The notes beneath the pieces were generated by a model that was not told the origin of the DNA, did not search any database, and worked only from the letters and a program-made list of their open reading frames with translations. Position numbers and translations under genes: made by a program. Shown here piece after piece: positions 195 through 62,712 of a stretch of 64,000 bases of DNA. How positions within the stretch are numbered: the first letter of the stretch is position 1; each line of letters begins with the position of its first letter. The DNA is from Haliclona indistincta (Eukaryota; Porifera; Demospongiae; Haplosclerida; Chalinidae): assembly GCA_964017065.1 (NCBI GenBank), contig OZ024785.1, positions 2,747,142 to 2,811,141 of the forward strand. Reading direction: 5' to 3'.

Positions 195-2603
195 TCATTG
201 TCCACGTTTCTCTTTGGTATGGGTGCGGTTATGTACTCGGAGATTTGAAAGCTGAGTGAAGCACTTCCCACATTCGGCACATGAGTATGGTTTCTCTCCA
301 GTATGGGTGCGGATGTGTCTTGTCAAATCGTTAGCCCATTTAGTAGAGTAGGAACAGTGTGGGCATTGGTGCAACCTCTTGGTTTGGACACGACCAGTTC
401 GGCATTTGGCTTTAACATGATCAGTTACTGATTGAATGTGCGTTTGTCTACTGAAGGAGTGAGAACGGATATGACGTTTTAAGACTCGATGATTAGCTGC
501 AGAGTAAGGGCAGTGTGAGCTCTGGTGTGACTTGCTTGAAAGAGATTGAGATGAACAACCTTCCACAGATGGTTTAGACCTTAATGCATCAACAGGTTCT
601 TCTGTTTGGGTATGGTCAGAGGTAATCTGCTGTTGTACAATAGACAATTAGGAACGATAAAGAAGTAACACTGCCTACCTCTTCATCAAAATCTTTGTCC
701 ACACTCTCGGACTCATTCCAGTCCTCACTCTCTGACTCATTCCAGTCCTCGCTCTCGGACTCATTCCAGTCCTCGCTGTCGGACTCATTCCAGTCCTCAC
801 TCTCTGACACACTCCAGTCCTCACTCTCAGACTCATTCTCTTCCTCCTCATTCTCATCATGGGACTCATTCTCTCCTAGCACATTCTCATCCATGCTCTC
901 ATCATGTTCCTCAGCCGTCAGTTCGTTCTCCTCCATCATCACTGGCTCACAATCCGTCTCCTGACCTCTCTGTGCTGTTTGATGACTCTTACAGACAATA
1001 CCATGGATACTAGTGTTTGTCACGCCCACACCACGGCTAGCCTGGGTAAAACGCTGTACTGTAGACTCATCTAAACGTGCAAAAAGTTGAAGTAGAACAA
1101 TGTAAATTATCACTCACAAACAGTCTCTACTGTGACCAGTTCAATGAGAGGGTTGAGTGAGTGTATCTGATCACTGACGACTGATAGCTCCTCAAATAGC
1201 TCACCCAGTCTCTGATAATAGAGAGAGACAGTGCAGCAGGCAGGGTGAGTAGGGTTGGTACCTTATCATGACTCTCACTGCTTTCCTCATCTCTCATCTT
1301 GTGTATGCACACACACACGTTACAATGGAGTGTCGTAGCTGTAGCAAGTACTGTAGCTTCACATCACTCCACTCCTGGTGTCCCTCCTCAAGGCCACACC
1401 TCTTCTTGTTGACTGCATCCTCTGTGACTAGCTGTATACACTCTGAACAGACCATCACAGTACATGCTAGTATAGTGTCTCAGCTAGCCACACCTTCCAT
1501 AGTGTCCAAGATACTGATGGCTGCCTCTAAGTGTGTGTCCTGGTCTGCAGTATCCAGCTCTGAGAACACATCATAGTACTTCTATGAATGAGAGAAAGAG
1601 TGTCACTCACACTCGCTCGCCTACTCACTTGCTCGCTCTCTCACCTTGCCTATTGTATCAATCCAGTGTTGTTCATGATCGATCAATGTTGACAATGTTC
1701 TCCATCGATCCTTTAACCCCTTCAACTCTGACCTGCTTTCTCTCAAATATTCTCTCACTTCTGTCTCCTGTACTCGTTGCTCTATCACGCTGTCCTCAAG
1801 ATTGCATAATCTCTCACTCAGCTGCTCCTGTCTCCCAAAGTTAGTTAACCTCTTTGTCTTCAAGTCTCTCATTGTTGCTGTGAACTCCACATCGAAATTA
1901 TACATGGCATCATGTAAATCACTCTTGAGTTTCTCTGTGTGAGTACATTAGTACATCAGTATATTGTGTGACGTGTGTCTCTTACTGATCTTGTCTGCAA
2001 TACTCTCATACACAGCTCTCTCCTGCTCCACAATCTCCCTCTCCTTCTCCACTAGCTCCAATGCTTCAACACGTTGCTTCTCTAGTTCCTCAAGAGTCAC
2101 TTTATCCTCTTCCTCCTGCTCTCTTCTCTTCACCAGCTCACAGTTCCTCACAGCTTCTTCAACTGCCTTCTCTGAAAGGATCGAGAGGGGACATCACGAG
2201 CTGATTATAACATGATGCTGTACCTGAGCATTGTTCACATTTCTCCAACTCCTCTCTCGTCCTATCTTCCTCTCCCTCTGCTAAACTATCCAAGTAGCTC
2301 TTGAAAGCTCTGCCATACTCGTCCAGTGCTGGTGTGTGTGGGACCAGTCGACCATAGTTGTAAGCAAGGTCAAGATGGTTGAGTACTTGAGTGGGTGTAA
2401 CCGTAGGGAGGTTGTGAGTGTGAGCTAGTGAGAGGACCTGGTCAATCTTGGCTAGCAGTTGGTGAGGAATTGCTGATGATGACGTCACTGTTTCTGCTAC
2501 ATAGCGGCGTCGAGCAGACAGATCGTTCGCTATACGAGGAGGACAACAGTATTACTAGTAACACTATACACCAGGTTGACTCACAACGTGCAGTGGAAGA
2601 CAT
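195..2603 (-). pseudogene. ZNF-A: short-finger member of the zinc-finger cluster, frame-broken
   Basis: The shared exon series is visible from the ATG at 2601-2603 down to the stop at 195. The helical exons at about 1621-2490 are open. The acidic exon (about 680-1075) has [12 protein letters not shown] repeats. The finger exon has only two intact C2H2 fingers plus a first finger whose leading Cys is Ser. In the exon at about 1262-1470 a CA run (about 1308-1319) is two bases longer than in paralogs, which shifts the frame and gives an early stop. The segment holding the end of exon 2 and its intron is missing: the sequence goes directly from TCATCATCAGC to AATTCC, still in frame. It is closest to ZNF-I, which is also short-fingered. 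It could be polymorphic rather than fixed as a pseudogene. Confidence 0.7.
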
Positions 2604-2662
2604 GATGACATCTAAGATCCAAGATGGTCTGAGCGGGATCAGGGTACTTCAAAATAATTATG

Positions 2663-2712
2663 CACACGTGTTCATGGGCGTGTCGTTTATTTCAAGCGCG
2701 CGCGCAAATTTA
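2663..2712 (-). promoter_or_regulatory. Conserved upstream block of ZNF-A
   Basis: CACACGTG at 2663-2670 is followed by TTCATGGGCGTGTCG, then a GCGCGC tract and AAATTTAAAG. The block lies 60-110 bases upstream of the proposed ATG and recurs at the same place in most paralogs. Its role as a core promoter is inferred. Confidence 0.5.
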
Positions 2713-3552: not shown

Positions 3553-3561
3553 CACTCACTG

Positions 3562-4290: not shown

Positions 4291-4294
4291 TCCT

Positions 4295-4962: not shown

Positions 4963-7498
4963 TTATGACGAATGCTTTGTACGCATATGGGCATTGAGAA
5001 ACCCACATTGAGTAAAGCTCTGCCCACATTCCTCACACGAGTAAGGCTTCTCTCCAGTGTGAGTATGGATGTGACGTTGCAAAAACGCAGCACTATGTTT
5101 GGTAGAGTATGGACAATGAGGGCACTGGTGTACCTTAGTTTGATCAGTTGAATGCTTTAAACGCATATGGGTACTGAGACCAGCTGACTGAGTAAAGCTC
5201 CGCCCACATTCCTTACACGAGTAAGGTTTCTCTCCAGTGTGAGTACGGATATGATCTTTCAAATGGCGAGATCTCTTGGCTACGTAAGGACAGTGAGGGC
5301 ACTGGTGTGACTTGTTTGGACAAGATCGAGAGGTGCGAGACGAACGTGATTTCGGATGTTTCAACATTTCCGTAGTGTATATGTACATGTAGGCTTGACC
5401 ACTCAGTGCAGTACTGTGGTCCGAGATCACATCCTGTTCTACAGCCTGCAAAGCAAAACATGATTTTATGAGGAAAGTAATTAATGTACTGCATATGCAA
5501 GCTGACCTCTTCACAATATTGATCACTATCTTCGTCACTTGTCACATCTTGTTCTACATTATCCACTGACATATCTTGGTCTTCTTCTGTCACTTTGTCC
5601 TCATGCATCACCACCTGATGACTCATAGCCACACCCACATCACCGGCTTCACTACAACTAATCTATTAGATAATACAAAGGCATCACGATCACACTATAC
5701 ATGTACTTACAGGGAAGTCAGGGCACTGGTATTTCTCTGCTATTTCTTCGTCATTCTTTTGTTGATTCTCATTCTCCAATTCAACCTGGTCTTCCTCTGC
5801 AAGTCTATCCTCCTCCATTAGCACTATCTGACAATCTCCATGCTGCATATTTCTCTCAGCCACTTAGACATGATCATCGGAGAACGTTTTGCAATAGGCC
5901 TGTTTAGCGTTCTGCATAAGACAATCTAATTGTGCAAAATATTTAAAGTCGACAGTGTAAATGCATTTTGTTGACTCACAAACAATCTCTACTGTGACCA
6001 GTTCAATGAGAGGGTTGAGTGAGTGTATCTGATCACTGACGACTGATAGCTCCTCAAATAGCTCACCCAGTCTCTGATAATAGAGAGAGAGACAGTGCAG
6101 CAGGCAGGGTGAGTCGGGTTGGTACCTTATCATGACTCTCACTGCTTTCCTCATCTCTCATCTTGTGTATGCACACACACGTTACAATGGAGTGACGTAG
6201 CTGTAGCAAGTACTGTAGCTTCACATCACTCCACTTCTGGTGTCCCTCCTCGTGGCCACACCTCTTGATGACTGCATCCTCTGTGACCAGCTGTATACAC
6301 TCTGAACAGACCATCACAGTACATGCTAGTATAGTGTCTCAGCTAGCCACACCTTCCATAGTGTCCAAGATACTGATGGCTGCCTCTAAGTGTGTGTCCT
6401 GGTCTGCAGTATCCAGCTCTGAGAACACATCATTGTACTTCTATGAGAAAGAAATGAGTCAAGATCAGCTATTGCCACACCCACTCACTCACCTTGCCTA
6501 TTGTATCAATCCAGTGTTGTTCATGATCGATCAATGATGACAGTGTTCTCCATCGATCCTCTAACTTATTCAACTCTAACCTGGTCTTTGTCAATGTTTC
6601 TCTCACTTCTGTTTCCTCTACTCGTTGCTCTATCACACTGTTCTCCAGATGCCATATCCTCTCATTCAACTGCTCCTGTCTCCCAAGGTTAGTGAACCTC
6701 TTTTTCTTCAATTCAGTCATTGTCGCTGTGAACTCCACATAGAAAGTGCACATGGCATCATGTAAATCACTCTTGAGTTTCTCTGTGTGAGTACATTAGT
6801 ACATCAGTATATTGTGTGACGTGTGTCTCTTACTGATCTTGTCTGCAATACTCTCATACACAGCTCTCTCCTGCTCCACAATCTTTCTCTCCTTCTCAAT
6901 AATCGTCAATGCTTCAACACGTTGCTTCTCTAGTTCCTCAAGAGTCACTGTATCCTCTTCCTCCTGCTCTCTCCTCTTCACCAGCTCACAGTTCCTCACA
7001 GCTTCTTCAACTGCCTTCTCTGAAAGGATCGAGAGGGGACATCATGAGCTGATTATAACATGATGCTGTACCTGAGCATTGTTCACATTTCTTCAACTCC
7101 TCTCTCGTCCTGTCTTCCTCTCCCTCTGCTAAACTATCCAAGTAGCTCTTGTAAGCTCTGCCATACCCGTCCAGTGCTGGTGTGTGTGGGACCAGTCGAC
7201 TATATTGGTAGGCAAGGTCAAGATGGTTGAGCACATTAGTGGGTGTAACCGTAGGGAGGTTGTGAGTATGAGCTAGTGAGAGGACCTGGTCAATCTTGGC
7301 TAGCAGTTGGTGAGGAATGGCTGAAGAGGAGAGAGGATCACCCAAGCTACAACCTGTGCTATGCTAACCATCGCCACGTGTAGCTGTTTCTGATACACAG
7401 CGACGTCGAGCGGACAGATCGTTCTCTATACGAGGAGGACAACATTAGTAGTAACACCATACACCAGGTGTAGACTCACAACATGCAGTGGAAGACAT
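4963..7498 (-). pseudogene. ZNF-B: four-finger type-2 member with a premature stop
   Basis: Type-2 members (B, E, 5' part of F) have a different linker exon beginning [10 protein letters not shown]. The finger exon ends at 4963 and carries four C2H2 fingers (CPHCPYVAKRS..., [11 protein letters not shown]..., [11 protein letters not shown]..., CEECGQSFTQC...), two of them with a 13-residue Cys-His gap. In the linker exon the codon that is CAA in E and F is TAA here (5864-5866), directly after SDDHV, so the fingers are cut off. Exons 1-7 are otherwise open. The helical exon at 6469-6753 is a variant ([17 protein letters not shown]) shared only with F. A four-base deletion near 7360 falls within a predicted intron. 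Confidence 0.7.
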
Positions 7499-8568: not shown

Positions 8569-11546
8569 TTACTCTCCTGTATGGGTGCGGTTATGCTTTT
8601 GTAGACTTGAAAGCTGAGTGAAGCACTTCCCACATTCTGTGCATGAGTATGGCTTCTCTCCAGTATGGATACGGTTATGTACTCGGAGATTTGAAAGGCG
8701 AGTGAAGCACTTCCCACATTCTATACATGAGTATGGTTTCTCTCCAGTATGGGTGCGGTTATGTACTCGGAGACTTGAAAGCTGAGAGAAGCACTTCCCA
8801 CATTCTGTGCATGAGTATGGTTTCTCTCCAGTATGGGTGCGGTTATGCTTTTGTAGACTTGAAAGCTGAGCGAAGCACTTCCCACATTCTGTGCATGAGT
8901 AGGGTTTCTCTCCAGTATGAGTGCGGTTATGTACTCGGTAACTTGAAAGCTGAGCGAAGCACTTCCCACATTGTGTACATGTGTATGGTTTCTCTCCAGT
9001 ATGGGTGCGGTTGTGAGCTCGGAGATGTGAAAGCTGAGTGAAGCATTTCCCACATTCTGTGCATGAGTATGGTTTCTCTCCAGTATGGGTGCAGTTATGC
9101 TTTTGTAGACTTGAAAGCTGAGCAAAGCACTTCCCACATTCTGTGCATGAGTATGGTTTCTCTCCAGTATGAGTGCGGTTATGTACTCGGTAACTTGAAA
9201 GCTGAGTGAAGCACTTCCCACATTGTGTACATGTGTATGGTTTCTCTCCAGTATGGGTGCGGTTATGTGCTCGGAGATGTGAAAGCTGAGTGAAGCATTT
9301 CCCACATTCGGTGCATGAGTATGGCTTCTCTCCAGTATGGAAACGGATATGAGTTGTCAAATTGCAAGCCCATTTGGTAGAGTAGGGACAGTGTGGGCAT
9401 TGGTGCAACCTCTTGGTTTGGAGACGACCAGTTCGACATTTGGCTTTAACTTGATCAGTTACTGATTGAATGCGCGTTTGTCTACTGAAGGAGTGAGAAC
9501 GGATGTGACGTTTTAAGACTCGATGATTTGTTGCAGAGTAAGGGCAGTGTGGGCACTGGTGCGACTTGCTTGAAAGAGATCGAGATGAACAACCTTCCTC
9601 AGATGGTTCAGACCTTACTGCATCAACAGGTTCTTCAGTATTCACTGTTTGGGTGTGGTCAGTGGTAATCTGCTGTTGTACAATAGATTATTACGAACGA
9701 TAAAGAAGAAAAACAAAACACTGCCTACCTCTTCATCAAAATCTTTGTCCTCACTCTCGGACTCATTCCAGTCCTCACTCTCGGACTCATTCTCTTCCTC
9801 CTCATTCTCGTCCTGGTCCTCATTCTCTCCTAGCACATTCTCATCCACGCTCTCATCATGTTCCTCAGCCGTCAGTTCGTTCTCCTCCATCAGCACTGGC
9901 TCACAATCTGTCTCCTGACCTCTCTGTGCTGTTCGATGACTCTTACAGACAATGCCATGGATACTAGTGTTTGCCACGCCCACATCACGGCTAGCCTGGG
10001 TAACACGCTGTACTGTAGACTCATCTAAACGTGCAAAAAGTTGAAGTAGAACAATGTAAATTATCACTCACAAACAGTCTCTACTGTGACCAGTTCAATG
10101 AGAGGGTTGAGTGAGTGTATCTGATCACTGACGACTGATAGCTCCTCAAATAGCTCACCCAGTCTCTGATAATAGAGAGAGACAGTGCAGCAGGCAGGGT
10201 GAGTAGGGTTGGTACCTTATCATGACTCACACTGCTTTCCTCATCTCTCATCTTGTGTATGCACACACACGTTACAATGGAGTGTCGTAGCTGTAGCAAG
10301 TACTGTAGCTTCACATCACTCCACTCCTGGTGTCCTTCCTCGTGGCCACGCCTCTTCTTGTTGACTGCATCCTCTGTGACAAGCTGTATACACTCTGAAC
10401 AGACCATCACAGTACAAGCTAGTATAGTGTCTCAGCTAGCCACACCTTCCATAGTGTCCAAGATACTGATGGCTGCCTCTAAGTGTGTGTCCTGGTCTGC
10501 AGTATTGAGCTCTGAGAACACATCATAGTACTTCTATGAATGAGAGAGAAAGAGTGTCACTCACACTCGCTCGTCTACTCACTTGCTCGCTCACTTACCT
10601 TGCCTATTGTATCAATCCAGTGTTGTTCATGATTATTTAATGTTGACAATGTTCTCCATCGATCCTTTAACCCCTTCAACTCTGACCTGCTTTCTCTCAA
10701 ATATTCTCTCACTTCTGTCTCCTGTACTCGTTGCTCTATCACACTGTTCTCAAGATTGCATAATCTCTCATTCAGCTGCTCCTGTCTCCCAAGGTTAGTG
10801 AACTTCTTTGTCTTCAAGTCTCTCATTGCCGCTGTGAACTCCACATCGAAATTATACATGGCATCATGTAAATCACTCTTGAGTTTCTCTGTGTGAGTAC
10901 ATTAGTACATCAGTATATTGTGTGACGTGTGTCTCTTACTGATCTTGTCTGCAATACTCTCATACACAGCTCTCTCCTGCTCCACAATCTCCCTCTCCTT
11001 CTTCACCAGCTTCAATGCTTCAACACGTTGCTTCTCTAGTTCCTCAAGAGTCACTGTATCCTCTTCCTGCTGCTCTCTCCTCTTCACCAGCTCACAGTTC
11101 CTCACAGCTTCTTCAACTGCCTTCTCTGAAAGGATCGAGAGGGGACATCATGAGCTGATTATAACATGATGCTGTACCTGAGCATTGTTCACATTTCTTC
11201 AACTCCTCTCTCGTCCTGTCTTCCTCTCCCTCTGCTAAACTATCCAAGTAGCTCTTGTAAGCTCTGCCATACTCGTCTAGTGCTGGTGTGTGTGGGACCA
11301 GTCGACCATATTGGTAGGCAAGGTCAAGATGGTTGAGTACTTGAGTGGGTGTAACCGTAGGGAGGTTGTGAGTATTAGCTAGTGAGAGGACCTGGTCAAT
11401 CTTGGCTAGCAGTTGGTGAGGAATGGCTGAAGAGGAGAGAGGATCGTCATACTACAACCAGCTACTGTGCTAACCATCTTCACGTGTAGCTGATGATGAC
11501 GTCACTTGTGCTGCTACATAGCGACGTCTAGCGGACAGATCGTTCA
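8569..11546 (-). CDS. ZNF-C: eleven-finger member of the cluster
   Basis: The finger exon (stop at 8569, up to about 9672) has eleven C2H2 fingers joined by TGEKPY linkers. The first has its full Cys pair, unlike most paralogs. Fingers 3-5 and 6-8 are near-identical three-finger blocks (contact residues at -1/2/3/6 about QSHA, QSSV, QSSK). The final linker ends at TAA where paralogs have AAA. The acidic exon is about 9727-10030 with two NESESED units. Helical exons follow to about 11546 and all junctions keep frame. The usual first exon (MSST...) is absent because the sequence upstream of 11560 diverges. An ATG near 11590 could start a tiny replacement exon, but this is weak. It is likely a nuclear DNA-binding protein; the target is unknown. 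Confidence 0.7.
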
Positions 11547-11642
11547 CTATACGAGGAGGACAACATTACTAGTAACACTGCATAACAAGGCAAGCTCACC
11601 AGATATGCTCAACTGTGTCATGTCCAGTCAGTGCTCACGATC

Positions 11643-11700: not shown

Positions 11701-12029
11701 AATAAGCCGAGGGGCAGCGGCCAGACTACTATACTGCTATGGTTAGGTCAAAGGTCACGAAAGATGCCGAATTCAGCTGCAGAGCAACAATTTCAGAGAT
11801 TTGAATGTTGTTTGCAGGCGCGTGTCCACGATAGGGCTCCGGGTGCTCTAGCACCCCCCTCAGCAATGAAGTTTTAAATTATTCATTGCATTAAAGTACA
11901 CTGTGGCTCTGTTTTCAGCGAGGAACAAATCCAGTGCGCCTCGATAATAGTGACGAAATGACGTAGTTTAACGAATAATTATGAATATTATGTTTTCTTG
12001 ATGCTCGCATGTTCGCATATTCGCATGTT

Positions 12030-15925: not shown

Positions 15926-18900
15926 TCATTGTCCACGTTTCTCTCCGGTATGGGTGCAGTTATGTACTTGGAGATTTGAAAGCTGATTGAAGAACTTCCC
16001 ACATTCAGCGCATGAGTATGGTTTCTCTCCAGTATGGGTGCGGTTATGTACTTGGAGATTTGAAAGCCGAGTGAAGCACTTCCCACATTCTGTGCATGAG
16101 TATGGCTTCTCTCCAGTATGGGTGCGGTTATGTACTCGGAGACTTGAACGCCGACTGAAGCACTTTCCACATTCAGCGCATGAGTACGGTTTCTCTCCAG
16201 TATGGGTGCGGTTATGTACTCGGAGATCTGAAAGCTGAGTGAAGCACTTTCCACATTCAGCGCATGAGTATGGTTTCTCTCCAGTATGGGTGCGGTTATG
16301 TACTCGGAGATTTGAAAGACTAGTGAAGCACTTCCCACATTCTGTGCATGAGTATGGTTTCTCTCCAGTATGGGTGCGGTTATGTGCTCGGAGATTTGAA
16401 AGCTGAGTGAAGCACTTCCCACATTCAGCGCATGAGTATGGTTTCTCTCCAGTATGGGTACGGATGTGTCTTGTCAAACTGCTAGTCCATTTGGTAGAGT
16501 AGGAACAGTGTGGGCATTGGTGCAACCTCTTGGTTTGGTGACGACCAGTTCGACATTTGGCTTTAACTTGATTAGTTACTGATTGAATGTGCGTTTGTCT
16601 ACTGAAGGAGTGAGAACGGATGTGATGTTTTAAGACTCGATGCTTTGTTGCAGAGTAAGGGCAGTGTGGGCTCTGGTGTGAATTGTTTGAAAGAGATTGA
16701 GATGAACAACCTTCCTCAGATGGTTCAGACCTTACTGCATCAACAGGTTCTTCAGTATTCACTGTTTGGGTGTGGTCAGTGGTAATCTGCTGTTGTACAA
16801 TAGATTATTAGGAACGATAATGAAGAAAAGCAAAACACTGCCTACCTCTTCATTGTCCTCGCTCTCGGATTCATTGCAGTCGTCACTCTCGGATTCATTC
16901 AAGTCCTCGCTCTCGGATTCATTCAAGTCCTCACTCTCGGATTCATTCAAGTCCTCACTCTCGGACTCATTCCAGTCCTCACTCTCTGACTCATTCTCTT
17001 CCTCCTCGTTCTCGTCCTGGTCCTCATTCTCTCCTAGCATATTCTCATCCATGCTCTCATCATGTTCCTCAGCCGTCAGTTCGTTCTCCTCCATCATCAC
17101 TGGCTCACAATCTGTCTCCTGACCTCTCTGTGCTGTTTGATGACTCTTACAGACAATACCATGGATACTAGTGTTTGCCACACCCACATCATGGCTAGCC
17201 TGGATAACACGCTGTACTGTAGACTCATCTAAAATGTGCAAAAAGTTGAAGTAGAACAATGTAAATTATCACTCACAAACAGTCTCTACTGTGACCAGTT
17301 CAATGAGAGGGTTAAGTGAGTGTATCTGATCACTGACGACTGATAGCTCCTCAAATAGCTCACCCAGTCTCTGATAATAGAGAGAGACAGTGCAGCAGGC
17401 AGGGTGAGTAGGGTTGGTACCTTATCATGACTCTCACTGCTTTCCTCATCTCTCATCTTGTGTATGCACACACACGTTACAATGGAGTGTCGTAGCTGTA
17501 GCAAGTACTGTAGCTTCACATCACTCCACTCCTGGTGTCCTTCTTCGTGGCCACACCTCTTCTTGTTCACTGCAATGACTGCATCCTCCGTGACTAGCTG
17601 TATACACTCTGAACAGACCATCACAGTACATGCTAGTATAGTGTCTCAGCTGGCCACACCTTCCATAGTGTCCAAGATACTGATGGCTGCCTCTAAGTGT
17701 GTGTCCTCGTCTGCAGTATTGAGCTCTGAGAACACATCATAGTACTTCTATGAATGAGAGAGAAAGAGTGTCACTCACACTCGCTCGCCTACTCACTTGC
17801 TCGCTCACTCACCTTGCCTATTGTATCAATCCAGTGTTGTTCATGATTGATCAATGTTGACAATGTTCTCCATCGATCCTTTAACCCCTTCAACTCTGAC
17901 CTGCTTTCTCTCAAATATTCTCTCACTTCTGTCTCCTGTACTCGTTGCTCTATCACACTGTTCTCAAGATTGCATAATCTCTCATTCAGCTGCTCCTGTC
18001 TCCCAAGGTTAGTGAACCTCTTTGTCTTCAAGTCTCTCATTGTCGCTGTGAACTCCACATCGAAATTATACATGGCATCATGTAAATCACTCTTGAGTTT
18101 CTCTGTGTGAGTACATTAATACATCAGTATATTGTGTAGGGCTGAAACGAATAACACATTTTCATGTTCGAATAGTCACTAGCTAAAACGAACGAATAGT
18201 CGAATACTCTATTATCGGAATAAAACTAGCTCTAGCAATCAGTGCACAAGAACAAAATATGTTTGAAAGTTGTATATCAACATAAAGTCAGGGCTCAGGC
18301 TTGATTTGTGGACTAGTTACAAATAGCCCAAGTTTCCCAACTGCTAAAAGACTTCAAACGAATATTCGAATAGCTGCAATAGCATTCGAATACTGTCAAA
18401 ACGATTGAATAGTCGAATAGTACAAGTATTAGTTTCAGCCCTAATATTGTGTGACGTGTGTCTCTTACTGATCTTGACTGCAATACTCTCATACACAGCT
18501 CTCTCCTGCTCCACAATCTCCCTCTCCTTCTTCACTAGCTTCAATGCTTCAACACGTTGCTTCTCTAGTTCCTCAAGAGCCACTTTATCCACTTCCTTCT
18601 GCTCTCTCCTCTTCACCAGCTCACAGTTCCTCACAACTTCTTCAACTGCCTTCTCTGAAAGGATCGAGAGGGTACATCATGAGCTGATTATAACATGATG
18701 CTGTACCTGAGCACTGTTCACATTTCTTCAACTCCTCTCTCGTTCTATCTTCCTCTCCCTCCACTAAACTATCCAAGTAGCTCTTGTAAGCTCTGCCATA
18801 CTCGTCCAGTGCTGGTGTGTGTGGGACCAGTCTACCATAGTTGTAAGCAAGGTCAAGATGGTTGAGTACTTGAGTGGGTGTAACTGTAGGGAGTTTGTGA

Positions 18901-19135
18901 GTATTAGCTAGTGAGAGGACCTGGTCAATCTTGGCTAGCAGTTGGTGAGGAATGGCTGAAGAGGAGAGAGGATCACCCAAGCTACAACCTGTGCTAGCTA
19001 TGCTAACCATCGCCACGTGTAGCTGTTTCTGATACATAGCGACGTCGAGCAGACAGATCGTTCACTATACGAGGAAGACAACATTACTAGTAACACCATA
19101 CACCAGGTAGACTCACAACGTGCAGTGTAAGACAT
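15926..19135 (-). CDS. ZNF-D: complete cluster member, coiled-coil/acidic/C2H2 protein
   Basis: Reference gene model. Exons are 19120-19135, 19008-19064, 18707-18955, 18469-18654, 17813-18102, 17681-17747, 17421-17632, 17281-17370, 16846-17223 and 15926-16789. All introns are GT-AG; most are 48-65 nt, the 18103-18468 intron is enlarged by a MITE. The joined length is 2409 nt (802 aa). Residues about 1-389 are charged and helical ([19 protein letters not shown] and similar), a probable coiled coil of no family I know. Residues about 390-515 are very acidic with six [11 protein letters not shown] repeats. Residues about 516-802 hold one degenerate and seven intact C2H2 fingers. It is probably a nuclear DNA-binding protein with an oligomerising N-terminus (inference). 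Uncertain points are the first intron (55 or 37 nt) and the exact acceptor of the acidic exon (17211 or 17223). Confidence 0.8.
18137..18443. mobile_element. hAT-type MITE in an intron of ZNF-D
   Basis: Ends TAGGGCTGAAACGAATA and TTAGTTTCAGCCCTA are inverted, with many internal CGAATA/TATTCG repeats. The 8-mer ATATTGTG flanks both sides (18129-18136 and 18444-18451). Ten paralogous introns show the single uninterrupted ATATTGTG, so the empty site is directly seen. Length 307 bases, no ORF. Confidence 0.93.
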
Positions 19136-20689: not shown

Positions 20690-21030
20690 TTTGAGACTAG
20701 CAATGTCCTAATCAGTTACTGAGTCAACATATGAACATTATGACGACAAGATTTCGCAAAGCATCATCCACATTCGTCTTTATATGAGTATGGTTTCTCT
20801 CTAGTGTGAGTATGGATGTGACTTTGCAAAGCACAGCACTATACTTGGTAGAGTATGGACAATGATGTACCTTAGTTTGATCATCTGACTCTGACTCATC
20901 TGCATGGCTCATACTCCGACTCATCGGGCTGATTGTCCGAATCATCCTGGTCTTCATACTCATACTCTGACTCAATCTGGTTTTCTGCTGTCTCCTCACT
21001 ATCTGCCCTTTCAGTACTGCTCTGTGCTTA
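20690..21030 (-). pseudogene. Zinc-finger relic downstream of ZNF-E
   Basis: A minus-strand remnant with DQTKVHHCPYSTKYSA, then a frame break, a TLERNH linker remnant and an acidic stretch upstream with DESESDDQ. It is the counterpart of the relic at 4295-4600. Confidence 0.6.
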
Positions 21031-21361
21031 GCCATAAGCAAAGCAAAGCATGCAAGACTAAGTTATTTTCACCAAGTTGTAAAACATTTGGATCAAACAA
21101 AGTTTTAATTTTCAACTGTATTATAATGACAGGTCGTCTATAGTAACGATGGTTGATTCAAAAGAATATTGATTGATTGATCACTTGAATAGAGAACAAG
21201 TGAGTATATGATAGCTACAGCATACTAGCTGAAATAATTGTTATACATCTACTCAAAGAAGAGTTAATCAGTTCAATGCTTCCTTCTCTTATGTCTATTA
21301 CAATTTGAACGTATGGTGAAGCACTGCCCACACATGATCAGTATGGCTTCTCTCCAGTCTC

Positions 21362-29500: not shown

Positions 29501-29524
29501 CTCACAACGTGCAGTGGAAGACAT
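26504..29524 (-). CDS. ZNF-F: chimeric type-2/type-1 cluster member with eight fingers
   Basis: Complete from the ATG at 29522-29524. The helical exons share the [17 protein letters not shown] variant with ZNF-B. The linker exon is type 2 ([10 protein letters not shown]..., no stop). The next exon starts as type 2 ([20 protein letters not shown]) and switches within a few codons to the type-1 acidic repeat ([18 protein letters not shown]). The finger exon has one degenerate finger (Cys and final His lost) and eight intact C2H2 fingers, the last being [26 protein letters not shown] as in ZNF-H. No frame break found. It is the clearest product of recombination between family types. Confidence 0.75.
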
Positions 29525-36440: not shown

Positions 36441-37645
<1,205 letters not shown>

Positions 37646-39676: not shown

Positions 39677-40050
39677 CTTTCACTATACACTACCCACTCA
39701 CACTGACTTGTACTATAACAAATTTTTGTCTTGAAATCATGCAGTATCTGATAATAATTGTGCTTTTGGGCTTCGTATGAAAACAGCAGTACTGTTGATG
39801 CCGATTTTGTGTTTCATAACTCACTCATTGTGAGAACACAGCTATAAAATTGATATTCTCTAAGAAAGTTTTTTTAAGAAGATTGCAATTTTTAGTGTAA
39901 TAGCTACACTTTCAAAAAATGATACAATAATCAACATATTTTTGCAGTGGCGAATAATTATTTATTAGTGCAATTCAAGAGCTTCTACTCAATGTATTCT
40001 AGATCTGTGGGCATTGCAACTTGAAGAACTTGACAAGTACTTCCCACACC
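39677..40050. other. Non-coding stretch between R2 and ZNF-H
   Basis: Matches 26148-26503 with small indels. No gene seen. Confidence 0.6.
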
Positions 40051-41974
40051 TCATGGCTTCTCTCCAGTATGAGTACGGATGTGTCGTTGCAAAGTCGCTG
40101 GACTATATTTAGTAACGTAAGAACAATGAGGGCATTGATGTAACGTAACTCGACCAGTTGAATGGACCGTACGCATGTGTCTACTGTAGTTTGATGAGTT
40201 ATTAAAGCCCCGCCCACATTCCTTGCACGAGTATGGCTTCTCTCCTGTGTGAGTTCGGATATGAACCTGCATACGAAAAGATCTCTTGGATGAGTAAGAA
40301 CAGCATGGGCACTGGTGCAACATCTTGTTTGGGACTTTGGAAGCAGCGTCCCTGTTAACTACATATTGTCTTGTACGCTCATGTGTACCGCGACTCGAAG
40401 AGTACTTTCCGTATTGTTTGTGTGATTGTGTCGATTTCTTAGGCTGCAAACGGAAGTGATGGTTAAAATTACTTATTGAAGAAGGTTGAGTTTGAACTGG
40501 TTTACGACCTCTCTTCACACTGGTCAATTCTTCATCATCATTCAGTGTTGTAGTGTTGCTAGACTATTGTAGAAATATTGTAATCATAAGGAGACCAATA
40601 CAAGTAACTAACCTCCACTTCATAACATTGTTTATCCCAATCTGCTCCTTGAGTACTGGTCTGTGTTGTTTGATGACTATTGTAGACAATGTCATGGAGA
40701 TCAGTGTTAGCCACACCCACATCACGACCAGACTGGATAGCACGCTGCATAGACTGATCTAAAAGTATTCAAAATCAATCTAAAGTTGTACTGTCAGTGT
40801 ACATTGTTGACTCACAAACAGTCTCTACTGTGACCAGTTCAATGAGAGGGTTGAGTGAGTGTATCTGATCACTGACGACTGATAGCTCCTCAAATAGCTC
40901 ACCCAGTCTCTGATAATAGAGAGAGACAGTGCAGCAGGCAGGGTGAGTAGGGTTGGTACCTTATCATGACTCTCACTGCTTTCCTCATCTCTCATCTTGT
41001 GTATGCACACACACGTTACAATGGAGTGTCGTAGCTGTAGCAAGTACTGTAGCTTCACATCACTCCACTCCTGGTGTCCCTCCTCGTGGCCACGCCTCTT
41101 CTTGTCGACTGCATCCTCTGTGACTAGCTTTATACACTCTGAACAGACCATCACAGTACATGCTAGTATAGTGTCTCAGCTAGCCACACCTTCCATAGTG
41201 TCCAAGATACTGATGGCTGCCTCTAAGTGTGTGTCCTGGTCTGCAGTATTGAGCTCTGAGAACACATCATAGTACTTCTACGAGTGAGAGAGAAAGAGTG
41301 TCACTCACACTCGCTCGCCTACTCACTTGCTCGCTCTCTCACCTTGCCTATTGTATCAATCCAGTGTTGTTCATGATCGATCAATGTTGACAATGTTCTC
41401 CATCGATCCTTTAACCCCTTCAACTCTGACCTGGTCTCTCTCAAATATTCTATCACTTCTGTCTCCTGTACTCGTTGCTCTATCACACTGTTCTCAAGAT
41501 TGCACAATCTCTCATTCAGCTGCTCCTGTCTCCCAAGGTTAGTGAACCTCTTTGTCTTTAAGTCTCTCATTGTCGCTGTGAACTCCACATCGAAATTATA
41601 CATGGCATCATGTAAATCACTCTTGAGTTTCTCTGTGTGAGTGCATTAGTACATCAGTATATTGTGTGACGTGTGTCTCTTACTGATCTTGTCTGCAATA
41701 CTCTCATACACAGCTCTCTCCTGCTCCACAATCTCCCTCTCCTTCTTCACTAGCTTCAATGCTTCAACACGTTGCTTCTCTAGTTCCTCAAGAGTCACTT
41801 TATCCTCTTCCTGCTCTCTTCTCTTGACCAGCTCACAGTTCCTCACAGCTTCTTCAACTGCCTTCTCTGAAAGGATCGAGAGGGGACATCATGAGCTGAT
41901 TATAACATGATGCTGTACCTGAGCATTGTTAACACCATACACCAGGTAGACTCACAACGTGAAGTGGAAGACAT
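40051..41974 (-). pseudogene. ZNF-H: three-finger divergent member with deleted 5' exons
   Basis: The finger exon (stop 40051) starts with a basic Ser/Lys/Arg-rich stretch and has three fingers (CPCCSYSSKRS, CKECGRGFNNSS, CPHCSYVTKYS). Its linker exon ([15 protein letters not shown]...) is a third type without the acidic repeat. The helical exons at 41319-41603 and 41646-41846 are intact. Upstream, GAGCATTGTT at 41921-41930 joins directly to AACACCATACACC, deleting the NDLSARRR and AIPHQLL exons. Joining the first exon remnant (ATG 41972-41974) to the next exon is out of frame. Probably a 5'-broken gene, unless it starts elsewhere. Confidence 0.65.
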
Positions 41975-44445: not shown

Positions 44446-46926
44446 TCATTGTCCACGTTTCTCTCCGGTATGGGTGCGGTTATGTACTCGGAGATTTGAA
44501 AGCTGAGTGAAGCACTTCCCACATTCGGCGCATGAGTACGGTTTCTCTCCGGTATGGGTGCGGATGTGTCTTGTCAAATCGTTAGCCCATTTAGTAGAGT
44601 AGGAACAGTGTGGGCATTGGTGCAACCTCTTGGTTTGGACACGACCAGTTCGGCATTTGGCTTTAACACGATCAGTTACTGATTGAATGTGTGTTTGTCT
44701 ACTGACAGAGTGAGAACGGATGTGACGTTTTAAGACTCGATGATTAGTTGCAGAGTAAGGGCAGTGTGAGCTCTGGTGTGACTTGCTTGAAAGAGATTGA
44801 GATGAACAACCTTCCACAGATGGTTCAGACCTTACTGCATCAACAGGTTCTTCTGTTTGGGAATGGTCAGAGGTAATCTGCTGTTGTACAATAGACAATT
44901 AGGAGCAATAAAGAAGTAACACTGCCTACCTCTTCATCAAAATCTTTGTCCACACTCTCGGACTCATTCCAGTCCACACTCTCTGACTCATTCCAGTCCT
45001 CGCTCTCGGACTCATTCCAGTCCTCACTCTCGGACTCATTCCAGTCCTCGCTGTCGGACTCATTCCAGTCCTCACTCTCTGACACACTCCAGTCCTCACT
45101 CTCAGACTCATTCTCTTCCTCCTCATTCTCATCCTGGGACTCATTCTCTCCTAGCACATTCTCATCCATGCTTTCATCATGTTCCTCAGCTGTCAGTTCG
45201 TTCTCCTCCATCAGCACTGGTTCACAATCTGTTCCTTGACCTCTCTGTGCTGTTCGATGACTCTTACAGACAATACCATGGATACTAGTGTTTGCCACGC
45301 CCACATCACGGCTAGCCTGGATAACAAGCTGTACTGTAGACTCATCTAAACGTGCAAAAAGTTGAAGTAGAACAAAGTAAATTATCACTCACAAACAGTC
45401 TCTACTGTGACCAGTTCAATGAGAGGGTTGAGTGAGTGTATCTGATCACTGACGACTGATAGCTCCTCAAATAGCTCACCCAGTCTCTGATAATAGAGAG
45501 AGACAGTGCAGCAGGCAGGGTGAGTAGGGTTGGTACCTTATCATGACTCTCACTGCTTTCCTCATCTCTCATCTTGTGTATGCTCACACACGTTACAATG
45601 GAGTGACGTAGCTGTAGCAAGTACTGTAGCTTCACATCACTCCACTCCTGGTGTCCCTCCTCAAGGCCACACCTCTTCTTGTTGACTGCATCCTCTGTGA
45701 CTAGCTGTATTTACTCTGAACAGACCATCACAGTACATGCTAGTATTGTGTATCAGCTAGCCACACCTTCCATAGTGTCCAAGATACTGATGGCTGCCTC
45801 TAAGTGTGTGTCCTGGTCTGCAGTATCCAGCTCGGAGAACACATCATAGTACTTCTGTGAGTGAGAGAGAAAGAGTGTCAGTCACACTCGCTCGCCTACT
45901 CACTTGCTCGCTCACTCACCTTGCCTATTGTATCAATCCAGTGTTGTTCATGATCGATCAATGTTGACAATGTTCTCCATCGATCCTTTAACTCCTTCAT
46001 CTCTGACCTGCTTTCTCTCAAACATTCTCTCACTTCTGTCTCCTGTACTCGTTGCTCTATCACACTGTTCTCAAGATTGCATAATCTCTCATTCAGCTGC
46101 TCCTGTCTCCCAAGGTTAGTTAACCTCTTTGTCTTCAAGTCTCTCATTGTTGCTGTGAACTCCACATCGAAATTATACATGGCATCATGTAAATCACTCT
46201 TGAGTTTCTCTGTGTGAGTACATTAGTACATCAGTATATTGTGTGACGTGTGTCTCTTACTGATCTTGTCTGCAATACTCTCATACACAGCTCTCTCCTG
46301 CTCCACAATCTCCTTCTCCTTCTCCACTAGCTTCAATGCTTCAACACGTTGCTTCTCTAGTTCCTCAAGAGTCACCTTATCCACTTCCTCCTGCTCTCTC
46401 CTCTTCACCAGCTCACAGTTCCTCACAGCTTCTTCAACTGCCTTCTCTAAAGGATCGAGAGGGGACATCATGAGCTGATTATAACATGATGCTGTACCTG
46501 AGCATTGTTCACATTTCTTCAACTCCTCTCTCGTCCTATCTTCCTCTCCCTCTGCTAAACTATTCAAGTAGCTCTTGAAAGCTGTGCCATACTCGTCTAG
46601 TGCTGGTGTGTGTGGGACCAGTCGACCATATTGGTAGGCAAGGTCAAGATGGTTGAGTACTTGAGTGGGTGTAACTGTAGGGAGTCTGTGAGTATTAGCT
46701 AGTGAGAGGACCTGGTCAATCTTGGCTAGCAGTTGGTGAGGAATGGCTGAAGGGGAGAGAGCATCACCCAAGCTACAACCTGTGCTAGATATGCTAACCA
46801 TCGCCACGTGTAGCTGTTTTTGATACATAGCGACGTCGAGCGGACAGATCGTTCACTATACGAGGAGGACAACATTACTAGTAACACCATACACCAGGTA
46901 AACTCACAACGTGCAGTCGAAGACAT
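44446..46926 (-). pseudogene. ZNF-I: short-finger member with an in-frame stop
   Basis: The first ATG is at 46924-46926. Exons match the reference model. The finger exon has two intact fingers and one degenerate finger, as in ZNF-A. The acidic exon (about 44930-45345) is the longest, with seven NESESEDW/V-type units. In the CSECIQLV exon the Cys codon TGT is changed to TAA (45711-45713), stopping the protein before the acidic and finger regions. A one-base loss in the intron near 46449 leaves an AG acceptor usable and also opens a read-through frame. The finger exon frame remains clean, suggesting a recent lesion. Confidence 0.72.
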
Positions 46927-54823: not shown

Positions 54824-57628
54824 TCATTGTCCTCGTTTCTTTCCAGTATGGGTGCGGTTATGTACTCGGAGATTTGAAAGCCGATTGAAGCATTTCCCAC
54901 ATTCTGTACATGAGTATGGTTTCTCTCCAGTATGGGTGCGGTTATGTACTCGGAGACTTGAAAGCTGAGTGAAGCACTTCCCACATTCTGTGCATGAGTA
55001 TGGTTTCTCTCCAGTATGGGTGCGGTTATGTCTTTCGAGACTTGAAAGCTGAGTGAAGCACTTCCCACATTCTGTGCATGAGAATGGTTTCTCTCCGGTA
55101 TGGATACGGTTATGTACTCGGAGATGTGAAAGCCGAGAGAAGCATTTCCCACATTCTGTACATGAGTACGGTTTCTCTCCAGTATGGGTGCGGCTATGCT
55201 TTTGTAGACTTGAAAGCTGAGTGAAGCACTTCCCACATTCTGTGCATGAGTATGGTTTCTCTCCAGTATGGATACGGTTATGTACTCGGAGATTTGAAAG
55301 CCGAGTGAAGCACTTCCCACATTCTGTGCATGAGTATGGTTTCCCTCCAGTATGGGTGCGGATGTGTTTTGTCAAATCGCTAGTCCGTTTGGTAGAGTAG
55401 GAACAGTGTGGGCATTGGTGCAACCTCTTGGTTTGGAGACGACCAGTTCGACACTTGTCTTTAACTTGATCAGTTACTGATTGAATGTGCGTTTGTCTAC
55501 TGAAGGAGTGAGAACGGATGTGACGTTTTAAGACTCGATGCTTTGTTGCAGAGTAAGGGCAGTGTGGGCTCTGGTGTGACTTGCTTGAAAGAGATTGAGA
55601 TGAACAACCTTCCTCAGATGGTCCAGACCTTACTGCATCAACAGGTTCTTCAGTATTCACTGTTTGGGTGTGGTCAGTGGTAATCTGCTGTTGTACAATA
55701 GATTATTAGGGACGATAAAGAAGAAAAGCAAAAACACTGCCTACCTCTTCATAAAAATCTTTGTCCTCACTCTCGGACCCATTCCAGTCCTCACTCTCGG
55801 ACTCATTCCAGTCCTCACTCTCGGACTCATTCTCGTCCTGGTCCTCATTCTCTCCTAGCACATTCTCATCCATGCTCTCATCATGTTCCTCAGCCGTCAG
55901 TTCGTTCTCCATCATCACTGGCTCACAATCTGTCTCCTGACCTCTCTGTGCTGTTTGATGACTCTTACAGACAATACCATGGATACTAGTGTTTGCCACA
56001 CCCACATCACGGCTAGCCTGGATAACACGCTGTACTGTAGACTCATCTAAATGTGCAAAAAGTTGAAGTAGAACAATGTAAATTATCACTCACAAACAGT
56101 CTCTACTGTGACCAGTTCAATGAGAGGGTTGAGTGAGTGTATCTGATCACTGACAACTGATAGCTCCTCAAATAGCTCACCCAGTCTCTGATAATAGAGA
56201 GAGACAGTGCAGCAGGCAGGGTGAGCAGGGTTGGTACCTTATCATGACTCTCACTGCTTTCCTCATCTCTCATCTTGTGTATGCACACACACGTTACAAT
56301 GGAGTGTCGTAGCTGTAGCAAGTACTGTAGCTTCACATCACTCCACTCCTGTTGCCGCTCCTCAAGGCCACGCCTCTTCTTGTTGACTGCATCCTTTGTG
56401 ACTAGCTGTATACACTCTGAACAGACCATCACAGTACATGCTAGTATAGTGTCTCAGCTAGCCACACCTTCCATAGTGTCCAAGATACTGATGGCTGCCT
56501 CTAAGTGCGTGTCCTGGTCTGCAGTATTGAGCTCTGAGAACACATCATAGTACTTCTATGAATGAGAGAGAAAGAGTGTCACTCACACTCGCTCGCCTAC
56601 TCACTTGCTCGCTCACTCACCTTGCCTATTGTATCAATCCAGTGTTGTTCATGATTGATCAATGTTGACAATGTTCTCCATCGATCCTTTAACCCCTTCA
56701 ACTCCGACCTGCTTTCTCTCAAATGTTCTCTCACTTCTGTCTCCTGTATTCGTTGCTCTATCGCACTGTTCTCAAGATTGCATAATCTCTCATTCAGCTG
56801 CTCCTGTCTCCCAAGGTTAGTGAACTTCTTTGTCTTCAAGTCTCTCATTGTTGCTGTGAACTCCACATCGAAATTATACATGGCATCATGTAAATCACTC
56901 TTGAGTTTCTCTGTGTGAGTACATTAGTACATCAGTATATTGTGTGACGTGTGTCTCTTACTGATCTTGTCTGCAATACTCTCATACGCAGCTCTCTCCT
57001 GCTCCACAATCTCCCTCTCCTTCTCCACTAGCTTCAATGCTTCAACACGTTGCTTCTCTAGTTCCTCAAGAGTCACTTTATCCACTTCCTTCTGCTCTCT
57101 CCTCTTCACCAGCTCACAGTTCCTCACAGCTTCTTCAACTGCCTTCTCTGAAAGGATCGAGAGGGGACATCATGAGCTGATTATAACATGATGCTGTACC
57201 TGAGCATTGTTCACATTTCTTTAACTCCTCTCTCGTCCTGTCTTCCTCTCGCTCTGCTAAACTATTCAAGTAGCTCTTGAAAGCTCTGCCATACTCGTCC
57301 AGTGCTGGTGTGTGTTGGACCAGTCGACTATATTGGTAGGCAAGGTCAAGATGGTTGAGTACTTGAGTGGGTGTAACTGTTGGGAGTTTGTGAGTACTAG
57401 CTAGTGAAAGGACCTGGTCAATCTTGGCTAGCAGTTGGTGAGGAATGGCTGAAGAGGAGAGAGGATCACCCAAGCTACAACCTGTGCTAGATATGCTAAC
57501 CATCGCCACGTGTAGATGTTTCTGATACATAGCGACGTCGAGCGGACAGATCGTTCACTATACGAGGAAGACAACATTACTAGTAACACTATACACCAGG
57601 TAGACTCACAACGTGCACTAGAAGACAT
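54824..57628 (-). CDS. ZNF-J: complete cluster member with seven intact fingers
   Basis: ATG at 57626-57628 (MSSSA...), second exon [13 protein letters not shown], then the [40 protein letters not shown] and LGELFEEL exons in order, all open. The acidic exon (about 55750-56050) has three NESESEDW units, one with NGSESED. The finger exon ends at 54824 with one degenerate and seven intact C2H2 fingers; the first linker is TGGKPY instead of TGEKPY. Contact residues include RSNV, QSSK, RSHV and QSSR types. It is the closest paralog of ZNF-G, including the flank. Confidence 0.8.
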
Positions 57629-57686: not shown

Positions 57687-57712
57687 CGCACACGTGCTTA
57701 TGGGCGTGCTGG
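57687..57712 (-). promoter_or_regulatory. Conserved upstream block of ZNF-J
   Basis: GCGCACACGTGCTTATGGGC followed by GTGCT. The GCGCGC/AAATTTAAAG part is missing because the sequence jumps to the GGCATGTACTGTACG region. Confidence 0.4.
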
Positions 57713-59818: not shown

Positions 59819-59922
59819 GCACATCAGTATTATGCGAGAAATTATGACAGCAAATAATTGGTTTTGATAATTATTTAGACAGCTGCAACACAGAAATGTC
59901 CATGGATATCCAAATGAGCAAA

Positions 59923-62712
59923 TCATTGTCCACGTTTCTCTCCAGTATGGGTGCAGTTATGTACTCGGAGATTTGTAAGCTGAGTGAAGCACTTCCCACA
60001 TTCTGTGCATGAGTACGGTTTTTCTCCAGTATGGGTGCGGTTATGTGATTGGAGATTTGAAAGCTGAGTGAAGCACTTCCCACATTCGGCACATGAGAAT
60101 GGTTTTTCTCCAGTATGGGTGCGGTTATGTACTCGGAGATTTGAAAGCCGAGTGAAGCACTTCCCACATTCGGCACATGAGAATGGATTTTCTCCAGTAT
60201 GGGTGCGGTTATGTACTCGGAGACTTGAAAGCTGAGTGAAGCACTTCCCACATTCTGTGCATGAGTACGGTTTCTCTCCAGTATGGGTGCGGTTATGTGC
60301 TCGGAGATTTGAAAGTGTAGTGAAGCACTTTCCACATTCTGTACATGAGTATGGTTTCTCTCCAGTATGGGTGCGGTTATGTTCTTGGAGATGTAAAAGT
60401 GTAATGAAGCACTTTCCACATTCGGCACATGAGAATGGTTTCTCTCCAGTATGGGTGCGGTTATGTACTTGAAGATTTGAAAGCGTAGTGAAGCACTTCC
60501 CACATTCGGTGCATGAGAATGGCTTCTCTCCAGTATGGGTACGGATGTGTCTTTTCAAATTGCCAGCCAATTTGGTAGAGTGGGAACAGTGTGGGCATTG
60601 GTGCAACCTCTCGGTTTGGAGACGACCAGTTCGACATTTGGCTTTAACTTGATCAGTTACTGATTGAATGTGCGTTCGTCTACTGATTGAGTGAGAACGG
60701 ATGTGACGTTTTAAGACTCGATGCTCTGTTGCAGAGTAAGGGCAGTGTGAGCTCTGGTGTGACTTGCTTGAAAGAGATTGAGATGAACAACCTTCCTCAG
60801 ATGGTTCAGACCTTACTGCATCAACAGGCTCTTCAGTATTCACTGTTTGGGTGTGGTCAGTGGTAATCTGCTGTTTTACAATAGATTATTAGGAACGATA
60901 AAGAAGAAAAACAAAAACACTGCCTACCTCTTCATCAAAATCTTTGTCCTCCCTCTCGGACTCATTCCAGTCCTCACTCTCTGACTCATTCTCTTCCTCC
61001 TCATTCTCGTCCTGGTCCTCATTCTCGTCCTGGTCCTCATTCTCTCCTAGCACATTCTCATCATGTTCCTCAGCCGTCAGTTCGTTCTCCTCCATCAGCA
61101 CTGGCTCACAATCTGTCTCTTGACCTCTCTGTGCTGTTTGATGACTCTTACAGACAATACCATGGATACTAGTGTTTGCCACGCCCACACCACGGCTAGC
61201 CTGGATAACACGCTGTACTGTAGACTCATCTAAATGTGCAAAAAGTTGAAGTAGAACAATGTAAATTATCACTCACAAACAGTCTCTACTGTGACCAGTT
61301 CAATGAGAGGGTTGAGTGAGTGTATCTGATCACTGACGACTGATAGCTCCTCAAATAGCTCACCCAGTCTCTGATAATAGAGAGAGACAGTGCAGCAGGC
61401 AGGGTGAGTAGGGTTGGTACCTTATCATGACTCTCACTGCTTTCCTCATCTCTCATCTTGTGTATGCACACACACGTAGTGTCGTAGCTGTAGCAAGTAC
61501 TGTAGCTTCACATCACTCCACTCCTGGTGTCCCTCCTCGTGGCCACGCCTCTTCTTGTTGACTGCATCCTCTGTGACTAGCTGTATACACTCTGAACAGA
61601 CCATCACAGTACATGCTAGTATAGTGTCTCAGCTAGCCACACCTTCCATAGTGTCCAAGATACTGATGGCTGCCTCTAAGTGTGTGTCCTGGTCTGCAGT
61701 ATTGAGCTCTGAGAACACATCATAGTACTTCTATGAATGAGAGAGAAAGAGTGTCACACTCGCTCGCTAGCCTTGTACCCAGGCTCACTGACGGAGATTT
61801 AATTATGCGTGGGTGTTGAAATGCGGGGGTGGCGATTGAGAGCCTGGTATCCACTGATTCGCACATGCGCAGACGATCCATGGAATTCCATGGATCCGTA
61901 TATTTTAGTTCACTATTGTGTTACTTTGCATCACGTTTACGGGATGACAGATTCTGATCGTGCACTATGGCTATGCTGTTGGCTATGTAAATTTGCGACG
62001 CGTTCCAGATAGTTTTTAGGCTGCTAAGAGAGCAGACAACTAGAGAGAGTTGCCCGCACGCTAGTACAAGTATACCTGTCATGAACACGTGGACGTACGA
62101 GGCTATACCTTAGTCTTGATAAACTGGAACGCATCTCGTGGAGCTACACGGGTTATATGCTTTGTGTAAGCATTGCCCACTTGATGCGCTCTTATGGTAG
62201 GCAAAGTCAGGCTTGTGGGAGACGCAGGCGCTCGATCAATACAGTGAAGGCGCAGCCATGTTGTAAACAAGAACGTCATAACGATATCTCGGTGGGCGCT
62301 CTCAATCGCCACCCCCGCATTTCAACACCCACACATAATTAAATCTCCGCCAGAGAGCCTGGGTACGAGGCTAACTCGCTCGCCTACTCACTTGCTCACT
62401 CACTCACCTTGCCTATTGTATCAATCCAGTGTTGTTCATGATTGATCAATGTTGACAATGTTCTCCATCGATCCTTTAACCCCTTCAACTCTGACCTGCT
62501 TTCTCTCAAATATTCTCTCACTTCTGTCTCCTGTACTCGTTGCTCTATCACACTGTTCTCAAGATTGCATAATCTCTCATTCAGCTGCTCCTGTCTCCCA
62601 AGGTTAGTGAACCTCTTTGTCTTCAAGTCTCTCATTGTCGCTGTGAACTCCACGTCGAAATTATACATGGCATCATGTAAATCACTCTTGAGTTTCTCTG
62701 TGTGAGTACATT
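59923..62712 (-). pseudogene. ZNF-K: eight-finger member, frame-broken and 5' truncated
   Basis: The finger exon (stop 59923) has one degenerate and eight intact fingers, with the widest range of contact residues in the cluster (TSNV, TLHE, TSNA, QSSV, RSNV, QSNS, QTNV). The acidic exon has a duplicated NEDQDE unit. In the CSECIQLV exon eight bases present in all paralogs (TACAATGG) are missing at 61476/61477, shifting the frame. The intron after the YNFDVEF exon (62396-62690) contains a 606-bp element. Homology ends near 62712, within the intron before the [10 protein letters not shown] exon, where a different element begins. The remaining 5' exons may lie beyond the window. Confidence 0.7.
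61768..62373. mobile_element. 606-bp element with about 76-bp inverted ends and 10-bp target duplication
   Basis: Ends TAGCC(T/C)(T/C)GTACCCAGGCTC and the mirror GAGCCTGGGTACGAGGCTA continue inverted through GGTGGCGATTGAGAGC. ACTCGCTCGC is repeated at 61758-61767 and 62374-62383. Paralogous introns carry it once. The long TIR with a 9-10 bp duplication is Mutator-like (inference). No transposase ORF. Confidence 0.9.

What the first reader, a model, noticed from the sequence alone, without database searches (positions are those of the whole stretch)
195..62712. Tandem cluster of eleven zinc-finger genes with an unrecognised coiled-coil N-terminal region
All members share one exon plan: a tiny MSST exon, [15 protein letters not shown], helical exons, an acidic exon, then C2H2 fingers. 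The N-terminal ~390 residues match no effector domain I know (not KRAB, SCAN, BTB, ZAD or FAX). A lineage-specific expansion in TE-rich DNA suggests a fast-evolving repressor family, possibly aimed at mobile elements (inference).
Basis: partly seen in the sequence, partly recalled or inferred. Interest (0 to 1): 0.9.

Follow-up and report, generated by a model that had tools for sequence, protein, structure and literature searches.

The report
Zinc-finger gene array, new N-terminal module
A small animal genome, perhaps a sponge's, carries a large, fast-changing family of DNA-binding zinc-finger genes whose front half is a helical module that matched no known family in the libraries searched, resembling in layout the families that vertebrates and insects each expanded.

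Summary
Confirmed and enlarged. The window holds eleven head-to-tail C2H2 genes on the minus strand, part of a 29-copy array (C3:2.66-2.83 Mb) and of about 83 copies, fragments included, genome-wide. Splice models join the N-terminal and finger exons in one frame; 6 of 11 window copies (C-G, J) show no lesion, the rest are damaged or truncated. The N-terminal module (exons 3-8) has no Pfam or NCBIfam match above cut-off. Exon 3 is predicted as a four-helix domain (pLDDT 85), exon 5 as a long helix. Among intact copies the module is under purifying selection (pN/pS 0.48), while finger positions -1, 3, 6 are the most diversified of 680 triples. Divergent relatives keep the layout, and unnamed ENA sources hold an ortholog and a separate expansion, so the module predates the arrays. 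Best reading: a lineage-specific C2H2 family with a new oligomerisation or docking module, working like ZAD or SCAN families. Repression and mobile-element targets remain untested; no tested protein meets a published activation-domain rule.

The parts
195..2603 (-). Copy A, type 1; 2 fingers; frameshift in exon 7 near 1315
4963..7498 (-). Copy B, type 2; 3 regular fingers; stop in the first acidic exon and, by reading, at the exon 1/2 join
8569..11621 (-). Copy C, type 1, intact, 854 aa model, 11 fingers with an internal three-finger (252-bp) repeat; different first exon (11600-11621)
15926..19135 (-). Copy D, type 1, intact, 809 aa model
21362..23903 (-). Copy E, type 2 (two acidic exons), intact, 667 aa model
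26504..29524 (-). Copy F, intact mosaic: module close to B's, type-2 acidic exons running into the W repeat, type-1 fingers with a type-2-like last finger
32778..35598 (-). Copy G, type 1, intact, 7 fingers
39999..41928 (-). Copy H, lacks exons 1-3; divergent C-terminal part; aligner needs a frameshift near 40563
44446..46926 (-). Copy I, type 1, 667 aa hand model; stop at the canonical start of exon 7; 2 fingers
54824..57628 (-). Copy J, type 1, intact, 7 fingers collinear with G
59923..64000 (-). Copy K, type 1; frameshift in exon 7; enlarged intron between exons 4 and 5; exons 1-4 beyond the window (C3:2811538-2812217)
46498..46746 (-). Exon 3 of copy I: predicted four-helix domain, well conserved in relatives
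46261..46446 (-). Exon 4 of copy I: charged exon
45920..46209 (-). Exon 5 of copy I: long helix predicted for a homologous protein (P0002)
45393..45854 (-). Exons 6-8 of copy I, with the conserved LQYLLQLR segment
44930..45345 (-). Exon 9 of copy I: acidic, with a 24-bp in-frame repeat (SEDWNESE)
44446..44880 (-). Exon 10 of copy I: finger exon, no Met codon
15181..15831 (.). 26-bp minisatellite 3' of copy D's finger exon; one or more units also 3' of A, C, G, I, J, K; all 26 exact 34-base matches in the genome lie inside this array

Best explanation
This is a real C2H2 zinc-finger protein family with a new N-terminal module (exons 3-8, about 360 residues: a four-helix domain followed by long helices), an acidic linker and a C-terminal finger array. 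Most likely the helical module makes the proteins self-associate and dock a partner, and the fingers carry it to DNA sites that differ between copies, so that the family works like ZAD or SCAN zinc-finger families. Shown: gene structure, copy number, age of the architecture, purifying selection on the module, diversity at base-contact positions. Inferred: oligomerisation, partner docking, nuclear regulatory role.
For: Open frame through the exons in 6 of 11 copies; no Met ahead of the fingers in 8 of 8 type-1-style finger exons. Module plus fingers kept at divergent loci on C10, C9 and C5; 23 invariant columns in 8 members. Module pN/pS 0.48, bootstrap 0.35-0.67, 0 of 4000 replicates at 1 or more, six intact copies. 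Positions -1, 3, 6 have the highest non-synonymous diversity of 680 triples; contact positions pN/pS 1.76 against 0.44 at other non-ligand positions in 41 fingers. Exon 3 model pLDDT 85; exon 5 region of P0002 one helix, block pLDDT 65-87 over residues 11-80. SCAN and ZAD preferentially homodimerise (PMC5509000, passages).
Against: No direct evidence of oligomerisation: hydrophobic periodicity of four exon-4/5 sequences is only weakly above shuffles (87 to 263 of 2000 as high). The rest of the exon 5-8 model has low confidence (mean pLDDT 57.7). The collinear G-J comparison shows no significant excess at contact positions (4 of 28 against 12 of 140, p 0.31). By the pN/pS ratio 145 of 680 triples are as high as -1, 3, 6 and 225 of 2380 quadruples as high as the four contacts. 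Exon 4 alone has pN/pS 1.55. In 4 of 16 fetched module loci outside the window no fingers lie within the stretch fetched.
Confidence: 0.62

Rival explanations
1. KRAB-zinc-finger-like genome defence: the module recruits a corepressor and each copy silences a mobile-element family; new copies arise as new elements spread.
For: Birth and death in tandem: 29 copies in the array, window copies sharing stretches of 900 bases or more at 87-97% identity (45 of 61 pairs were printed); diverse contact positions; a reverse-transcriptase element with 22 matches at 96-98% identity over residues 6-185 among the 150 scored; a separate expansion in another source.
Against: No binding, expression or repression data. 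No corepressor-binding motif is known for the module. Diversifying fingers also occur in families with other roles, such as PRDM9 (recalled).
Confidence: 0.33
2. Mainly neutral or weakly selected tandem amplification: a recombination-prone unit multiplies and decays, with few working genes.
For: 5 of 11 window copies damaged or truncated; minisatellites and in-frame repeats within the unit; mosaic copy F; pN/pS 1.55 of exon 4.
Against: Module pN/pS 0.48 among intact copies; the architecture is kept in divergent relatives.
Confidence: 0.15
3. Transcriptional activators working through the acidic W-containing exon.
For: Acidic exon with 32-50 acidic residues of 98-138 in seven type-1 copies, and up to 6 W in copy I.
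Against: No 39-residue tile of D, E, G, J, I or C meets the published acidic activation-domain rule (passages of PMC10550315); F was tested only with an earlier, less accurate model (also none). 5 of 7 type-1 acidic exons have only one or two W.
Confidence: 0.1
4. The helical exons and the finger exons are separate neighbouring genes.
For: No transcript data; some module copies without fingers in the fetched stretch (L029, L036 with L046, L038, L044).
Against: Continuous frame over short introns, no Met before the fingers, same order in divergent loci.
Confidence: 0.04

Closest known systems
ZAD C2H2 family of insects
   Same: N-terminal module plus C-terminal finger array, expanded in one lineage; ZAD preferentially homodimerises (PMC5509000, passages)
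   Different: No ZAD match in Pfam; the exon-3 domain is predicted all-helical, whereas ZAD binds zinc through cysteines (recalled)
SCAN C2H2 family of vertebrates
   Same: All-helical N-terminal module ahead of fingers; gene clusters (PMC5509000, passages)
   Different: No SCAN match in Pfam; fold comparison inconclusive; a module of about 360 residues with a long helix rather than one short domain (SCAN length recalled)
KRAB zinc-finger proteins of tetrapods
   Same: Tandem clusters with turnover, TGEKPY-linked fingers, diverse base-contact positions (the KRAB side recalled)
   Different: No KRAB match; no evidence of a TRIM28-like partner or of repression
C2H2 expansions of cephalopods
   Same: Lineage-specific C2H2 expansion in an invertebrate (PMC12513265, passages)
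   Different: In that paper's main text the words N-terminal and effector do not occur, so no comparable module is described there under those words
PRDM9
   Same: Tandem-repeat finger arrays with diverse contact residues (recalled)
   Different: No PR/SET domain in the window family; a separate PR-domain finger cluster lies on C5 of the same genome

Membership tests
C2H2 zinc-finger proteins | zf-C2H2 repeats above Pfam cut-off | tested here: met
   PF00096 30.2 bits against cut-off 25.2 in copy I; 2-11 regular fingers per copy
KRAB zinc-finger proteins | KRAB domain by sequence profile | tested here: not met
   Absent at E<=10 for copy I and at E<=1 for 8 module sequences; exons 1-2 tested only in copy I
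SCAN zinc-finger proteins | SCAN domain by sequence profile | tested here: not met
   Absent
SCAN zinc-finger proteins | SCAN fold | tested here: inconclusive
ZAD zinc-finger proteins | ZAD domain by sequence profile | tested here: not met
   Absent
BTB zinc-finger proteins | BTB domain by sequence profile | tested here: not met
   Absent
PRDM family | PR/SET domain | tested here: not met
   Absent from the window family; present in the separate C5 cluster
TRIM/RBCC coiled coil | TRIM_CC profile above cut-off | tested here: not met
   One of 8 members, at E 0.76 only
KRAB-like genome defence (role) | Represses mobile elements through sequence-specific binding | not testable with these tools
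   No expression or ChIP data
ZAD/SCAN-like role | N-terminal module self-associates | not testable with these tools
   Helix predictions only

The most novel reading that the evidence does not exclude
If the genome is a sponge's, an early-branching animal independently evolved its own KRAB-zinc-finger-like genome-defence system: a new helical module that oligomerises and recruits a silencing complex, coupled to some 80 copies with fast-diversifying finger arrays that track mobile elements.
Probability: 0.27. Interest if true: 0.88.

Novelty: new variant of a known kind. Interest (0 to 1): 0.64.

Why it matters
Large C2H2 families have repeatedly paired a lineage's own N-terminal module with finger arrays: KRAB and SCAN in vertebrates, ZAD in insects (PMC5509000, passages). 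A comparable pairing with a different module, perhaps in a sponge, would be an independent case far from both, and would let one ask whether such families arise wherever mobile elements spread. The module is a concrete, expressible target.
Full report
What is there. The window is C3:2747142-2811141 of a 144-Mb genome in 46 contigs. Eleven copies of one gene lie head to tail on the minus strand. I built copy I by hand from the sequence: exons of 19, 57, 249, 186, 290, 90, 168, 94, 416 and 435 bases give 667 residues and a stop. The usual join of exons 6 and 7 reads [11 protein letters not shown]; copy I has a stop there and needs a downstream acceptor. Copies C, D, E, F, G and J have no lesion; F was rechecked with a mixed template and C with its own first exon (854 residues). 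A and K have a frameshift in exon 7. B has a stop in its first acidic exon and another at the exon 1/2 join (my reading). H lacks exons 1-3. Exons 1-4 of K lie beyond the window end.

Extent. Exon 5 has 80 matches and exon 3 has 85 matches in the genome. After dropping 2 and 8 short or weak rows they merge to 83 copies, 70 with both exons: 29 in the array C3:2.66-2.83 Mb, all on one strand, 13 at C8:5.10-5.21, 10 at C3:5.00-5.10, 5 on C6, 3 on C1, 3 on C10, the rest scattered. Of 16 fetched loci outside the window that hold module exons, 12 have fingers on the same strand within the stretch (C10, C9, C5, C6, C1, C3, C4, C8); L029, L036 (with L046), L038 and L044 do not, and L038 and L044 are themselves truncated. 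Minus-strand fingers lie further on from L029, in L030.

Two C-terminal types and reassortment. A, C, D, G, I, J and K have one acidic exon with a 24-bp in-frame repeat, SEDWNESE. B and E have two other acidic exons and different fingers. E pairs a module close to the type-1 copies with type-2 acidic exons and fingers, while F has B's module subtype, type-2 acidic exons, the W repeat and type-1 fingers, so the array reassorts its parts. A 26-bp minisatellite lies 3' of type-1 copies, and all 26 exact 34-base matches in the genome fall inside the array.

One gene, not two. In 8 of 8 type-1-style finger exons (A, C, D, F, G, I, J, K) there is no Met before the fingers, and 7 of 8 have none at all. 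Most introns are 43-67 bases (the longer values there include one true 366-base intron in D and aligner splits of the acidic repeat). The same order recurs at C10, C9 and C5, where the module is 27-54% identical to copy I's. This is indirect; no transcript was seen.

Age and expansion. Alignment searches found 46 exon-3 proteins and 7 others in unnamed ENA sources. Some equal this genome's copies, so it is sampled there itself. P0037 is 90% identical to the single C9 copy. Twelve others (P0020, 22-26, 28-32, 34 less P0027) reach 73-81% to the 38 distinct own peptides at hand, and P0024 reaches 78% over exon 3 in the whole genome. In a tree of 78 rows the twelve rows P0020, P0022-P0026, P0028-P0032 and P0034 fall in one all-ENA set (93/80) with a starred subset of 7; the tree has few columns, and ENA is a source label, not a species. 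The architecture therefore seems to predate the arrays, and at least one other source has its own expansion.

Selection. Over 361 module codons of six intact copies pN/pS is 0.48 (bootstrap 0.35-0.67, 0 of 4000 at 1 or more); for exons 3 to 8 it is 0.36, 1.55, 0.55, 0.59, 0.31 and 0.12. In 41 fingers of one type, positions -1, 2, 3, 6 have pN/pS 1.76 against 0.44 at other non-ligand positions. Among 40 distinct fingers, positions -1, 3, 6 rank first of 680 triples by non-synonymous diversity; by ratio they do not stand out (145 of 680 as high), because several positions have almost no synonymous change. The collinear G and J arrays show 4 of 28 contact and 12 of 140 other codons changed, p 0.31. 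Fingers within arrays are not independent, so this is suggestive, not proof, of positive selection.

How it most likely works. Shown: a conserved, predicted-helical module in frame with variable DNA-binding fingers. From the literature: ZAD and SCAN modules preferentially homodimerise, and for three ZAD proteins this sets long-range contacts (PMC5509000, passages). Inferred: this module self-associates and docks a cofactor. Activation through the acidic exon is less likely: no 39-residue tile in D, E, G, J, I or C meets the published rule. Repression of mobile elements is plausible, since a reverse-transcriptase element with 22 matches at 96-98% over most of the query lies in the array, but untested.

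Verdict. It is a new variant of a known kind: a lineage-specific C2H2 family with its own N-terminal module.

Noticed in passing
G000 C5:10.303-10.353 Mb (L001-L004, L006-L008): A separate cluster of finger genes; the two loci scanned (L001, L006) carry an upstream PR/SET domain (PRDM2_PR E about 1e-28; SET E 1e-5 and 3e-7). PRDM9-like in layout; no exon-3 or exon-5 module there.
   Followed up: partly
window 12002-12592, perhaps to 14708: Reverse-transcriptase frame (RVT_1 E 4e-22), LINE-type by my reading, between copies C and D; 22 matches at 96-98% over residues 6-185 elsewhere (150 of 370 candidates scored), so probably recently active.
   Followed up: partly
window, about 100-155 bases upstream of exon 2 in copies A-F, I, J: CACGCCCAT with an E-box CACGTG starting 12 (C: 14) bases further on, in 8 of 9 copies checked (not G); CACGTG also in 7 of 20 other copies, against 12.6% of random 470-base stretches. 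Shared descent is not excluded.
   Followed up: partly
window 24515-26503 and 38039-40008: Duplicated at 94% identity between finger-gene copies; plus-strand frames with a possible transmembrane segment by my reading, no Pfam match in the two frames scanned. A passenger of a larger duplication.
   Followed up: no
window 50165-50653: Plus-strand frame with a fibronectin type III domain (fn3 E 5e-7).
   Followed up: no
window 20724-21062: Degenerate type-2 acidic/finger remnant between copies D and E (by reading), perhaps a twelfth, dead copy.
   Followed up: no
L036 (C8:12262500-12272400) with L046: Module exons 2-8 without fingers in the fetched downstream stretch; neighbouring frames repeat an SRTEIRKELLEQCHDSEEER-like segment beside long S/T/Q/P repeats.
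   Followed up: partly
window 36441-37645: 1.2-kb TTTC microsatellite.
   Followed up: no
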